Virus record (IMG/VR): IMGVR_UViG_3300025128_000134
Span: 1-37,778 of that record
Strand: one strand, 5' to 3'
Origin: a virus
DNA length: 37,778 nt
Shown here: positions 30,617 to 34,011 of the stretch, in pieces
Layout: every line of letters starts with the position of its first letter
Position numbering within the stretch: position 1 is the stretch's first letter
Made by a program: the position numbers and the translations under genes
Notes under the pieces: model-generated
Seen by the model: only the letters and a program-made list of their open reading frames with translations
The model's database searches: none
Told to the model about the DNA's origin: nothing

Positions 30617-31147
30617 ATGATTTTAGGTTTAGATATAAGCACCAGCATAACTGGCGCAACAGTAATTGACGAAAATGGAAAAGTTATTCATAACGAAGCT
30701 TGGGACTTGAGAAAGTACAAAGACTTTTTTGAAAAAGCAGCAGTTATCAAGAGTAAAATTTGGGAACTAGACGATACTTTCCTTATCAAAGAAGTTTATA
30801 TTGAGCAGTCACTTCAGAGCTTTAGAAGCGGCTTCTCATCAGCGAAAACGCTTTCTACACTATCTCGCTTTAATGGCGTTGTTTCGTGGCTATGTTATCA
30901 TATACTAGAAATAAAGCCTGAATACATCGCAGCGACATCCGCAAGAAAGAAATGCGGCATCAAAGTACCAAAAGGCGTCAAAGCAAAACAAGTTGTAATT
31001 CAATATGTACTTGACAACGTACCTGCTGTTAATATAGTATATACAAAACACGGCAATCCTAAACCTAGCTGCTTTGACAAGGCAGATAGTTGGGTCGTTG
31101 CCCAAGCAGGATATTTATGTCGGATGGAAAAAAGCGATCAATCTTAA
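30617..31147 (+). CDS. RuvC-like Holliday junction resolvase
   Basis: The 176-residue product has the RuvC/RNase-H-like nuclease pattern. The first strand is 'ILGLDISTSITGATVID' with the catalytic Asp at 6. The second acidic residue is Glu63 in 'VYIEQSLQSF', and the C-terminal helix carries Asp154 and Asp157 in 'CFDKADSWVVA'. A Lys-rich connector ('GIKVPKGVKAKQVV') precedes that helix. These match the four acidic metal ligands of the family. The enzyme is expected to cut branched DNA, as needed before packaging of a recombining phage genome; T4 uses the unrelated endonuclease VII (gp49) for that job. The length is that of a compact RuvC. The gene lacks a visible ribosome site. Its last 31 bases overlap the primase gene. 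Confidence 0.82.
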   Translation: MILGLDISTSITGATVIDENGKVIHNEAWDLRKYKDFFEKAAVIKSKIWELDDTFLIKEVYIEQSLQSFRSGFSSAKTLSTLSRFNGVVSWLCYHILEIKPEYIAATSARKKCGIKVPKGVKAKQVVIQYVLDNVPAVNIVYTKHGNPKPSCFDKADSWVVAQAGYLCRMEKSDQS

Positions 31148-32058
31148 GAAGTGCTCTAGGCTACTATCATCAATCCGGAAATGAACTTCTTTTCGCTTGT
31201 CCAAAATGCAATCATCACAAAAATAAACTATCTGTTAATTTAGAACGAGATGTTTTTAAGTGTTGGGTCTGCGAATATGCGGGCCGATCGATTTATCGGC
31301 TTGTTCGTCGTTATGGAAATTACGAGCAACGCAAAGAGTGGGCCCAGTTCACTCAACAAATTGATGTCTCAACCTTCGCAGAGATAATGCTTCAAGAGGA
31401 TAAGCTTGTTGAAGAAGAGCAGACTCTTGATTTACCAAAAGAGTTTGTATCTCTGGCAAACAAAAATCTTCCAAAGACTTCTCTTTATCCTTTAAACTAT
31501 CTAGAAAGCCGCGGCATCTTCAAACAGGATATTATAAAATGGAAGATTGGATATTGTGATAGTGGTGATTTCGAATCACGAATAATAATCCCTTCGTTTG
31601 GTCTCGCAGGCAAAGCAAACTTTTTTATTGCGAGGGCCTATGGAGATGATTGGAGAAAATATAAGAACCCGCAGGCAAGCAAAGATATTATCTTTAACGA
31701 GCTGTACCTTGACTTCGATGAAGATATGGTATTGGTCGAAGGCGCGTTTGATGCTATAAAAGCTGGCGATAACGCTGTTCCAATTCTCGGCTCAACTCTA
31801 AGGGAACATTCGAAACTGTTTCAAGAAATTGTAAAAAACGATACACCAATTTACATTGCTTTAGATCCAGATGTGGATCGCAAGACTTTGCAAATAATAA
31901 AACTTCTATTAGAATATGATATTGAAGTCCATAAAATCAATATTCTTCCATACAACGATGTTGGCGAAATGTCACGACAACAATTCTTGAAGAGAAAAGA
32001 AGAAGCAACATTTATCAAATCTTATGACTATTTAATTAATGAAATCTTAAATTTGTAA
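31117..32058 (+). CDS. DNA primase with zinc ribbon and Toprim domain
   Basis: A TTG at 31090 is possible, but the ATG at 31117 gives a sensible 313-residue primase ('MSDGKKRSIL'), so I use it. The N-terminus carries a zinc ribbon with Cys28, Cys31, Cys49 and Cys52 ('CPKC' and 'CWVC', with an intervening HHK), as in DnaG/gp61-type primases. The Toprim region contains 'VLVEGAFDAIKAGD' (Glu208) and 'IALDPDVDR' (Asp250, Asp252), the acidic metal-binding motifs. The protein should make RNA primers for lagging-strand synthesis, working with a helicase that is not in this window. The C-terminal tail (about 270-313) is helical and may contact the helicase. The gene overlaps ruvC by 31 bases in another frame and is followed by a strong AAGGAG that serves the next small gene. 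Confidence 0.85.
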   Translation: MSDGKKRSILRSALGYYHQSGNELLFACPKCNHHKNKLSVNLERDVFKCWVCEYAGRSIYRLVRRYGNYEQRKEWAQFTQQIDVSTFAEIMLQEDKLVEEEQTLDLPKEFVSLANKNLPKTSLYPLNYLESRGIFKQDIIKWKIGYCDSGDFESRIIIPSFGLAGKANFFIARAYGDDWRKYKNPQASKDIIFNELYLDFDEDMVLVEGAFDAIKAGDNAVPILGSTLREHSKLFQEIVKNDTPIYIALDPDVDRKTLQIIKLLLEYDIEVHKINILPYNDVGEMSRQQFLKRKEEATFIKSYDYLINEILNL

Positions 32059-32070
32059 GGAGATTGATTA

Positions 32071-32172
32071 ATGAAAAAAGTATTACATAAATTAGTAAAC
32101 CTATTCAACAATAATCATTGCTGTTGCTGTTGTGGCTGCTGTGCTTGTGAAAGCTGCTCTGGAAAATGCTAA
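32071..32172 (+). CDS. 33-residue peptide with ten cysteines
   Basis: This short open frame starts with an ATG placed after a strong AAGGAG (about 32058-32063), 12 bases after the primase stop. The peptide has a basic, amphipathic start ('MKKVLHKLVNLF'), an Asn/His bridge, and a tail where 10 of 17 residues are Cys (17-21, 23, 24, 26, 29, 33; 'CCCCCGCCACESC'). The 16-codon head followed by clustered TGT/TGC codons, the strong ribosome site and the fit into the operon favour a real gene. I recognise no family. Metal binding like a metallothionein, disulfide or thiol chemistry, or membrane association through acylated cysteines are possibilities; none is shown. It could be a small regulator or a virion component. 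Confidence 0.6.
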   Translation: MKKVLHKLVNLFNNNHCCCCCGCCACESCSGKC

Positions 32173-32191: not shown

Positions 32192-32773
32192 ATGCGAATT
32201 TCAAAACAAAATTTAAAAAAAATCATCAAAGAAGAAGTTGAAGCGGTTTTAGATGAAAAAAGAAAACGCAAGAAGAAAACAGACGATCGCTGCACTAAAA
32301 TAGCAAAAAGAAAATATGATGTTTGGCCTTCGGCCTATGCATCTGGCGCAGTTGTAAAATGCCGCCAGGGTAAAATATGGAAAGGTTTAAAAGAAGAAGA
32401 TCGTCCGTATATATCTGATAACGAACGAAGAAGTGATCTTGAATCAGATATGAAAAAGATTATTGAACAAGAGATACAAAAAGTATTAGACGAAAAAAAA
32501 AGAAAGAAGAGAAGAAAACTAACCGACAAGCCAAGTTCTGAAACTAGTCTTCGTGATTGGTTTGGAAGAAAAGGAGCAAAAGGTAAGAAAGGCGGCTGGG
32601 TTGATTGTAACACTTGTCGCAAAGATAAAAAAACAGGCCGCAAGAAATGTAAATCTTGTGGTAGATCTGGTGAAGAAAAGAGAGCAAAATATCCATCTTG
32701 TCGTCCAACACCGGGCGCCTGTGGTAAAAAAGGAAAATACGGCAAAAAATCAAAAGCCGGCAAAAAAGGATAA
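32192..32773 (+). CDS. Basic Cys protein with MKITK-type leader, duplicated leader and zinc-ribbon-like tail
   Basis: An in-frame ATG exists at 32132, but it lies inside the Cys-peptide gene; starting at 32192 gives the N-terminus 'MRISKQNLKKIIKEE', the same leader as four other proteins here. The product is 193 residues and very Lys/Arg-rich. The leader ends in L20-D-E22, followed at once by KRKRKKK. A second copy of the leader core lies at 87-110 ('MKKIIEQEIQKVLDE', then KKRKKRRK). Between them is 'KYDVWPSAYASGAVVKCRQG' (41-60), a motif I recall from many phage and algal-virus proteins. The C-terminal part has CxxC pairs (139/142, 153/156) plus Cys170 and Cys177, a likely zinc ribbon. Nucleic-acid binding and packaging in the capsid are inferences. 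Confidence 0.7.
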   Translation: MRISKQNLKKIIKEEVEAVLDEKRKRKKKTDDRCTKIAKRKYDVWPSAYASGAVVKCRQGKIWKGLKEEDRPYISDNERRSDLESDMKKIIEQEIQKVLDEKKRKKRRKLTDKPSSETSLRDWFGRKGAKGKKGGWVDCNTCRKDKKTGRKKCKSCGRSGEEKRAKYPSCRPTPGACGKKGKYGKKSKAGKKG

Positions 32774-32778
32774 CCATT

Positions 32779-33057
32779 ATGAAAATCACAAAAGAAAATT
32801 TAGAGCAGATTATTAAAGAAGAAATCGAAGCAGCTTTAAATGAAGAAGGAGTTAAAATTCACGGCGGCCGCGGCCTGAAAAACGGCAGAGATGTGTATTA
32901 TGTGAAAGATGAGCATGATAAGCGCGACGCAGGTCAGCGACCTGAGCTTTCGATTGAAAGCCAGAGAGAACACTGTCGTTCTAGATCTAAAGGTGAACGT
33001 GTACACTTTAATGAAAAAACAAAAAGATGTGAATATGATTATCCGGACGAGGAGTAG
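32779..33057 (+). CDS. Small charged protein with MKITK-type leader
   Basis: This 92-residue product starts 6 bases after the upstream stop, with AAGGAT just before it. Residues 1-22 are the shared leader 'MKITKENLEQIIKEE' ending in L20-N-E22. The remaining 70 residues are hydrophilic and charged, with Cys71 and Cys84 spaced around 'KGERVHFNEKTKRCEYDYP' and no recognisable fold. If the leader is removed after Glu22, the mature peptide would be about 70 residues. A GC-only octamer GCGGCCGC lies at 32864-32871. The function is unknown; the cluster suggests a co-expressed set of leader-tagged small proteins. Confidence 0.68.
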   Translation: MKITKENLEQIIKEEIEAALNEEGVKIHGGRGLKNGRDVYYVKDEHDKRDAGQRPELSIESQREHCRSRSKGERVHFNEKTKRCEYDYPDEE

Positions 33058-33060
33058 ACA

Positions 33061-33696
33061 ATGAAAATTACAAAAGAATATCTACAACAAATTATTAAAG
33101 AAGAACTAGAGGCTGTTCTTAACGAAGAAAAAGTAAAATTAATTTTCGAAGGCGGCAAGTACGGTTTAGATGGCGGCCGCCGGCGCACTCTTCGTCAAGA
33201 TATTGAAGACATTGAAAAAGAAACTGCAGCAACAGAAAGAAGAACTGCAGGTAAGCAAGCTTATTATGATAGAACTGGTAGATATTACGACGATGAAAGC
33301 ACGGAGCGCCACGGACCAAGAGATATTATTCAGCTAGATCCAAGCAGCCTGTATGAAGAAGAATTTTATGAAGTTGATGCTTTAGGTGAAAACGAAGAAT
33401 ATTGTCCTGCCTGCGCTCCGCTAGAAGAGAAAAAGAAAAAAAAGAAGAAGAAAAAGAAGAAAGCCTGTAAACCATCCAAAGGCAAAAGGTTTGCTAAAAG
33501 AGTTGATGGCAAATGTCGCTCATTCGGGCAAGCAGGCCAAGCAAAAAGTGGCGGTGACAGAATTCGTCCCGGCACAGCAAAAGGTGATGCTTATTGCGCA
33601 AGATCTGCCGGCATCAAAAAATGTAAAAATCCACCGTGCGCAAATACACTTTCTAGAAAGAAGTGGAAATGTCGTGGTAAAAAATCAATGAAATAA
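33061..33696 (+). CDS. Basic Cys protein with MKITK-type leader and poly-lysine tract
   Basis: The 211-residue product starts 3 bases after the previous stop and uses a GAGGAG ribosome site. The leader is 'MKITKEYLQQIIKEE' with L20-N-E22. An acidic, Tyr-rich middle (about 65-123) leads to a run of 11 Lys (124-134) that directly follows L121-E-E123, another (L/I)-x-E site. The basic C-terminal half has Cys136, 152, 179, 188, 193 and 204, including 'KGDAYCARSAGIKKC' and 'LSRKKWKCRGK', a combination I recall from small proteins of T4-like marine phages. It may bind DNA. No enzyme motif is seen. The stop lies 5 bases before the tmRNA 5' end, so tmRNA may be transcribed with this operon and then processed. 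Confidence 0.7.
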   Translation: MKITKEYLQQIIKEELEAVLNEEKVKLIFEGGKYGLDGGRRRTLRQDIEDIEKETAATERRTAGKQAYYDRTGRYYDDESTERHGPRDIIQLDPSSLYEEEFYEVDALGENEEYCPACAPLEEKKKKKKKKKKKACKPSKGKRFAKRVDGKCRSFGQAGQAKSGGDRIRPGTAKGDAYCARSAGIKKCKNPPCANTLSRKKWKCRGKKSMK

Positions 33697-33701
33697 ATTA
33701 T

Positions 33702-34011
33702 GGGGATGAACTGGTATCGACTGGATACTGAAAATTTAATGTGCAAGGCTGTGTGAGTGTGGCACAGTAAAAACACTCAACAATTTAAACGCAAACGATA
33801 ACGTTGGCTTTGATTACGCCCTAGCGGCTTAATTACGGGGTTGTAGTCGCCTTGTTAACCAAGACTACGAAAAAAGTTTTTGGCTTCTTTAAAGAGCCAA
33901 TAGTTAGCGAAATGAGATAAGTTTGTCAGAGTTCACAAACTGACTAACCTTGTGAATGACATTATTTTGGAAATATTTAGGACCCGGGTTCGACTCCCGG
34001 CATCTCCACCA
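33702..34011 (+). ncRNA. ssrA: tmRNA (ssrA), one-piece, phage-encoded
   Basis: All key parts are visible. The 5' end GGGGATGAACTGG pairs with the 3' end CATCTCC-ACCA to form the acceptor stem, and CCA is encoded. The T arm is CCGGG-TTCGACT-CCCGG near the 3' end. The resume codon GCA at 33791 opens a tag frame that ends at TAA 33830-33832. After the tag come a helix (33843-33848 with 33863-33868), a hairpin (33880-33885 with 33895-33900) and a likely pseudoknot (33921-33926 with 33935-33940, and 33925-33929 with 33940-33944). tmRNA, with SmpB, frees stalled ribosomes and tags the product for proteolysis. No smpB gene is in the window, so host SmpB is presumed. Confidence 0.95.
33791..33832 (+). 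other. tmRNA tag reading frame (ANDNVGFDYALAA)
   Basis: Thirteen codons from the resume GCA encode ANDNVGFDYALAA, then TAA. The end, YALAA, matches the E. coli tag ANDENYALAA and keeps the LAA recognised by ClpX. The AND start resembles the SspB-contact part, but a few extra residues (about 'VGFD') lengthen the spacing before Tyr. The tag is therefore a plausible degradation signal with altered adaptor geometry. The adaptor effect is inference. Confidence 0.92.

What the first reader, a model, noticed from the sequence alone, without database searches (positions are those of the whole stretch)
32071..32172. 33-residue peptide with ten cysteines, five in a row
Seen: a 33-codon gene with a strong AAGGAG, between the primase and the leader-tagged set, whose last 17 residues include 10 Cys. 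It is too short for routine gene calling, so relatives are probably unannotated. Inference: a metallothionein-like zinc or copper chelator, a redox or thiol modifier of host enzymes, or an acylated membrane peptide. The neighbours are also Cys-rich and possibly zinc-binding, which may be one theme.
Basis: partly seen in the sequence, partly recalled or inferred. Interest (0 to 1): 0.7.

Follow-up and report, generated by a model that had tools for sequence, protein, structure and literature searches.

The report
Conserved ten-cysteine peptide of uncultured phages
A gene of only 33 codons that annotation misses turns out to be one of about 75 distinct versions of the same ten-cysteine mini-protein carried, one per genome, by large uncultured T4-like phages, most likely a metal-binding (metallothionein-like) peptide that sits at the head of their cargo-gene clusters.

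Summary
Window 32071-32172 encodes MKKVLHKLVNLFNNNHCCCCCGCCACESCSGKC behind a strong AAGGAG, and it is a real gene. Scans of IMG/VR gave 75 distinct relatives, consensus MKxxLHKLxNLFNxxHCCCCCGCCxCxxCxGxC, almost always one per record. A pattern holding only the N-terminal half found 45 places; all 45 run on into the poly-Cys. Cys codons are about half TGC, half TGT, with purifying selection in both halves. Exactly ten Cys are kept in 69 of 76 peptides although the C-terminal spacing differs. No Pfam, PHROGs, NCBIfam or PDB sequence match was found, except a weak AT-hook on extended versions. Records carrying it are large, mostly with a T4-type prohead protease. The peptide typically heads a cluster: the next gene carries a capsid-targeting-like leader in 44 of 55 cases (15% background), and the tmRNA lies within 2.5 kb in 14 of 30 records (1.2 expected). 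Best explanation: a cytosolic metal-thiolate peptide, metallothionein-like in mode but not a member by sequence, with a conserved helix that probably docks on a partner. A poly-Cys attenuator, an acylated peptide and a disulfide toxin fit less well. Metal binding, expression, host and the helix's partner are untested.

The parts
32071..32172 (+). Ten-cysteine peptide gene, 33 codons plus stop
   Evidence: homologues
32057..32062 (+). Shine-Dalgarno AAGGAG, 8 nt before the ATG, overlapping the primase stop codon
   Evidence: comparable sites before nearly all homologues
32071..32115 (+). Codons for the conserved amphipathic N-terminal helix MKKVLHKLVNLFNNN
   Evidence: consensus MKxxLHKLxNLFN; helix 3-11 in a low-confidence AlphaFold2 model
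32116..32169 (+). Codons for invariant His16 and the ten-Cys cluster
31117..32058 (+). DnaG-type primase, upstream neighbour
   Evidence: PHROG 47 E 2.6e-39
32192..32773 (+). Leader-tagged gene (MRISKQNLKKIIKEE...), next gene downstream, 19 nt after the peptide stop; basic, Cys-containing C-terminus
   Evidence: family-wide association
32779..33057 (+). Leader-tagged gene (MKITKENLEQIIKEE...)
33061..33696 (+). Leader-tagged gene (MKITKEYLQQIIKEE...)
33702..34011 (+). Phage tmRNA, tag ANDNVGFDYALAA
   Evidence: ARAGORN; Rfam RF00023 124 bits; linkage

Best explanation
It is a functional phage mini-protein that works as a metallothionein-like metal-thiolate peptide in the infected cell. Shown: a translated-looking, conserved, essentially single-copy accessory gene of large T4-like phages, kept as an invariant helix-His-Cys5 architecture with ten Cys, usually first in a cluster of leader-tagged genes and often next to the phage tmRNA. 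Inferred: in the reducing cytosol the ten thiolates (with His16 and perhaps His6) wrap soft metal ions, Zn(II) or Cu(I), in one small cluster. The conserved basic amphipathic helix LH[KR]LxNLF docks this cluster on a specific partner (in a few versions a C-terminal RGRPRK tail would add DNA affinity), so that it buffers, donates or strips metal or thiols at one place rather than acting as a free chelator.
For: Cys number is exactly 10 in 69 of 76 peptides across several different C-terminal spacings (CxCxxCxGxC, CxCxxGCC, CxCCC and others), as expected for a thiolate cluster and not for a disulfide fold, where spacing is conserved. Cys and His16 codons are synonymously mixed. The N-terminal half was not part of patterns 1 and 2, yet His6 is kept in 74/75, Lys/Arg7 in 75/75, Leu8 in 72/75 and Phe12 in 72/75, with a dN/dS-like ratio of 0.32, 0.16 in the Cys half. 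The N-terminal half never occurs without the Cys half (45 of 45). Length and hydrophobicity speak against an export signal. Sulfur and iron-sulfur genes lie beside it in some records: IscU in 7 of 50 records, 5 of these within about 2.2 kb of the peptide, and cysteine synthase 6 nt downstream in L306.
Against: There is no direct evidence of metal binding or expression. There is no sequence match to any metallothionein family or solved structure. Five contiguous Cys are unusual for metallothioneins as I know them. The conservation of Cys and His16 is partly built in by the search patterns. The strong link to leader-tagged genes and tmRNA is not predicted by a simple metal buffer. The IscU cases may all come from one lineage.
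Confidence: 0.5

Rival explanations
1. A poly-Cys upstream ORF acting in cis: ribosomes that slow at the Cys codons, or simply translate through, regulate the next gene (leader-tagged gene or tmRNA) by attenuation or translational coupling, as in the cysteine-responsive polycysteine sORFs of mycobacteria.
For: The next gene starts -4 (15 loci), -1 (6) or 0 (7) nt from the stop, 48 of 73 loci within -7 to +21; tmRNA begins 1-16 nt after the stop in several loci; in L306 the next gene is cysteine synthase. Polycysteine sORF attenuators exist in mycobacteria (Canestrari 2020, doi 10.1111/mmi.14498; known here only by its title, through PMC13236596).
Against: The N-terminal helix is conserved at the amino-acid level with free synonymous change. 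Poly-Cys codons show no excess pairing with the 120 nt downstream or upstream (mean z 0.01 and -0.02, 74 loci). Downstream genes are diverse and rarely concern cysteine. AT-hook tails make no sense in a cis element.
Confidence: 0.17
2. A capsid-cassette peptide: the helix is a non-cleaved virion-targeting sequence and the Cys cluster is packaged with the tagged internal proteins and enters the host with the DNA.
For: It heads cassettes of tagged genes (44/55 against 124/828, Fisher p 2.5e-24). The tags carry an [LI]xE site right after the leader (161 of 168, partly built into the regex), and 23 of 28 records encode a T4-type prohead protease. T4 internal proteins use short N-terminal capsid-targeting sequences cleaved by gp21 (PMC5694885, PMC9958956).
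Against: 0 of 76 peptides have [LI]xE before the Cys cluster. The helix sequence differs from all tag families. Genes near tags need not be packaged.
Confidence: 0.13
3. A redox or thiol effector, or an inhibitor that docks on a host enzyme and takes its metal or modifies its thiols.
For: The helix side chains are conserved as identities, not only as a pattern; some versions carry an AT-hook-like tail.
Against: No partner is known and there are no CxxC-type thioredoxin features.
Confidence: 0.13
4. An acylated membrane peptide, or a disulfide-rich secreted toxin.
For: Poly-Cys strings are acylated in some eukaryotic proteins (own knowledge).
Against: No signal peptide, lipobox or hydrophobic segment; Cys spacing varies; no such acylation system is known to me in bacteria.
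Confidence: 0.04

Closest known systems
Bacterial metallothioneins (SmtA/PmtA type)
   Same: Short, Cys-rich, cytosolic by sequence; Cys plus His as possible ligands
   Different: No sequence match in Pfam or PDB; Cys clustered as CCCCCGCC; N-terminal amphipathic helix; phage-borne
Yeast Cup1-type copper thioneins (own knowledge)
   Same: About ten Cys forming one Cu(I) cluster
   Different: No sequence relation found; no helix
Polycysteine leader sORFs of mycobacteria (Canestrari 2020)
   Same: Short poly-Cys ORF just before another gene
   Different: Here it has a Shine-Dalgarno-like site, a conserved N-terminal helix and diverse downstream genes, and no pairing signal
T4 internal proteins with capsid-targeting sequences
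   Same: The neighbouring tagged genes have leaders of comparable length ending in [LI]xE, in phages with a gp21-type protease
   Different: The Cys peptide itself lacks the cleavage site

Membership tests
Metallothionein | Small protein, about 20-30% Cys or more | tested here: met
   10 of 33 residues are Cys
Metallothionein | Sequence match to a metallothionein family model or solved structure | tested here: not met
   No match in Pfam or NCBIfam; PDB profile search gave 0 hits at E up to 10
Metallothionein | Cys number conserved, spacing tolerant, aromatic residues rare in the cluster | tested here: met
   69 of 76 have exactly 10 Cys over several spacings; aromatic residues are rare exceptions in the cluster
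Metallothionein | Binds several metal ions through thiolates | not testable with these tools
   Needs mass spectrometry on the purified peptide
Polycysteine attenuator sORF | Poly-Cys codons take part in an RNA structure controlling the next gene | tested here: not met
   Duplex energies with 120 nt on either side do not differ from shuffled flanks, mean z about 0; more distant structures not tested
Polycysteine attenuator sORF | Downstream genes of sulfur metabolism | tested here: not met
   Mostly leader-tagged genes; cysteine synthase directly downstream only in L306
T4 internal protein (capsid-targeting sequence plus gp21 cleavage) | N-terminal leader ending in [LI]xE | tested here: not met
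   0 of 76 peptides

The most novel reading that the evidence does not exclude
A dedicated phage metal-thiolate effector: the constant first gene of variable cassettes of capsid-targeted, ejected cargo (and tmRNA), made or delivered to take or give metal at one host or virion target recognised by its helix. That would be a kind of phage function not described before.
Probability: 0.18. Interest if true: 0.88.

Novelty: new variant of a known kind. Interest (0 to 1): 0.64.

Why it matters
A strictly conserved mini-protein of 31-49 residues recurs across diverse large phages and is missing from Pfam, PHROGs and NCBIfam, presumably because it is too short for gene callers. If it binds metal it would be, as far as this search shows, the first phage metallothionein-like family, and would make metal handling during infection testable with a very simple reagent. 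Its place at the head of leader-tagged cassettes also gives a marker for finding phage ejection cargo.

Tried and rejected
tblastn of the peptide against phage isolates found nothing, but the low-complexity filter masks poly-Cys, so this is uninformative; blastn of the locus gave only chance matches. Three GenBank phage records with related primases, two isolates and one uncultured phage assembly, lack the motif. The Cys-rich theme of neighbours was tested family-wide and rejected. RNA pairing of poly-Cys codons with the flanks was tested and rejected. The AlphaFold2 model is weak (pLDDT 65), so no fold search was made. Literature searches for phage metallothioneins or Cys-rich phage peptides found no description.

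Full report
The feature. Window 32071-32172 encodes MKKVLHKLVNLFNNNHCCCCCGCCACESCSGKC. AAGGAG at 32057-32062 lies 8 nt before the ATG and overlaps the primase stop codon. No other short Cys-rich ORF of this kind exists in the window, and none arose in 60 Markov resamplings. The window is a 37.8 kb IMG/VR record.

The family. Primase relatives in IMG/VR showed the same frame after the primase in L002, L004, L005, L010 and L011, and its absence in L003, L006 and L007. Degenerate Cys patterns and a profile search of all fetched loci gave 75 distinct peptides with the consensus MKxxLHKLxNLFNxxHCCCCCGCCxCxxCxGxC. Because these patterns fix most Cys positions and His16, I ran a pattern with the N-terminal half only: 45 places, of which 43 were already known members; the two new ones also run into poly-Cys, one of them cut by the contig end. 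The two halves are therefore one unit.

Selection. Cys codons are about half TGC and half TGT. The ratio of non-synonymous to synonymous differences per site is 0.32 for the N-terminal half and 0.16 for the Cys half (synonymous sites are saturated, so these are rough, and the second is biased by the patterns). Nearly every copy has a purine-rich Shine-Dalgarno-like site. Forty-eight of 50 records searched whole hold the motif, once each except a truncated tandem second copy in L077; the two without are L006, which lacks the gene, and L362, whose version HCCCCGTC does not fit the pattern. Ten records with related primases and three phage records from GenBank have none. It is an accessory gene.

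Stoichiometry. Sixty-nine of 76 peptides have exactly ten Cys although the tail occurs in many spacings, mainly CxCxxCxGxC (34) and CxCxxGCC (25). This favours a thiolate cluster over a fixed disulfide fold. The N-terminal segment is amphipathic with mean hydrophobicity near zero, so it is unlikely to be a signal peptide or a membrane span. AlphaFold2 gives a helix at 3-11 with low confidence.

Context. The peptide has different upstream genes; a primase is the commonest (18 loci within five genes). The next gene is a leader-tagged gene in 44 of 55 close neighbours against 124 of 828 other same-strand ORFs (Fisher p 2.5e-24; loci are not fully independent), and tagged genes are frequent after the peptide (70, 41 and 35% at +1, +2 and +3) but not before it (23, 13 and 8%). 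Start codons overlap or abut the peptide stop in many loci: -4 in 15, -1 in 6, 0 in 7. The tags (MKITKxxLxxIIxEE, ENWRKYLxE, PKFxxQNKKRxxPRYFLNE) end in [LI]xE, and 23 of 28 large records encode a Peptidase_S77 prohead protease. This matches the capsid-targeting sequences of T4 internal proteins, which are short N-terminal propeptides removed by the prohead protease (PMC5694885, PMC9958956). That the tagged proteins are packaged is inference. The Cys peptide itself lacks such a site (0 of 76).

tmRNA. The window's tmRNA at 33702-34011 is confirmed by ARAGORN and Rfam. Of 50 records, 32 carry a tmRNA over the cut-off. In 14 of 30 records where both were placed it lies within 2.5 kb of the peptide, 13 of these downstream, against 1.2 expected under uniform placement. 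In several loci it starts 1-16 nt after the peptide stop. Relatedness of the records weakens the statistic, but at least two tmRNA tag families (ANDNVxFDYALAA and ANDDVEIFEDFALAA types) share the linkage.

Mechanism. I commit to a metallothionein-like metal-thiolate peptide with a docking helix (confidence 0.5). Steps shown: coding, conservation, ten Cys, cassette position. Steps inferred: metal binding, docking, benefit to the phage. IscU, found in 7 of 50 records with 5 within about 2.2 kb of the peptide, is a hint towards metal or sulfur handling. The L115 IscU closely resembles bacterial IscU in the PDB, best match 2L4X, which suggests a proteobacterial host for that lineage only.

Rivals. 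The poly-Cys attenuator has real support from the tight coupling to the next gene, but the conserved helix, the lack of RNA pairing and the diverse downstream genes speak against it; a combined role cannot be excluded. Packaging in the virion is possible but has no direct support. Acylation and a disulfide toxin are unlikely.

Limits. All carriers are metagenomic or otherwise uncultured fragments as far as known; hosts are unknown. No expression or binding data exist. The literature held here is open-access only, so 'not described' means not found in this library and not in the family databases searched.

Noticed in passing
window 33702-34011: The phage encodes its own complete tmRNA with tag ANDNVGFDYALAA; 32 of 50 records searched also have one.
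   Followed up: partly
window 32192-33696 and family loci: Leader-tagged genes: several unrelated short N-terminal leaders, all ending in [LI]xE, on otherwise unrelated proteins in phages with a T4-type prohead protease; they look like capsid-targeting sequences of ejected internal proteins and could be used to list phage cargo.
   Followed up: partly
L110, L123, L164, L069 (peptide C-terminus): Extended versions of the peptide carry an AT-hook-like tail RRRGRPRK (Pfam AT_hook E 0.18, below cut-off).
   Followed up: no
L115, L038, L078, L306: Phage-borne IscU, an IscA-like protein, a thioredoxin-like protein and cysteine synthase lie close to the peptide gene.
   Followed up: partly
L077 reverse strand, about 1560-1660 of the reverse complement: A second, truncated tandem copy of the peptide (MKKILNKKHCCCCCGCCKWPIPLRYFAHLL), just upstream of the intact copy and the tmRNA.
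   Followed up: no
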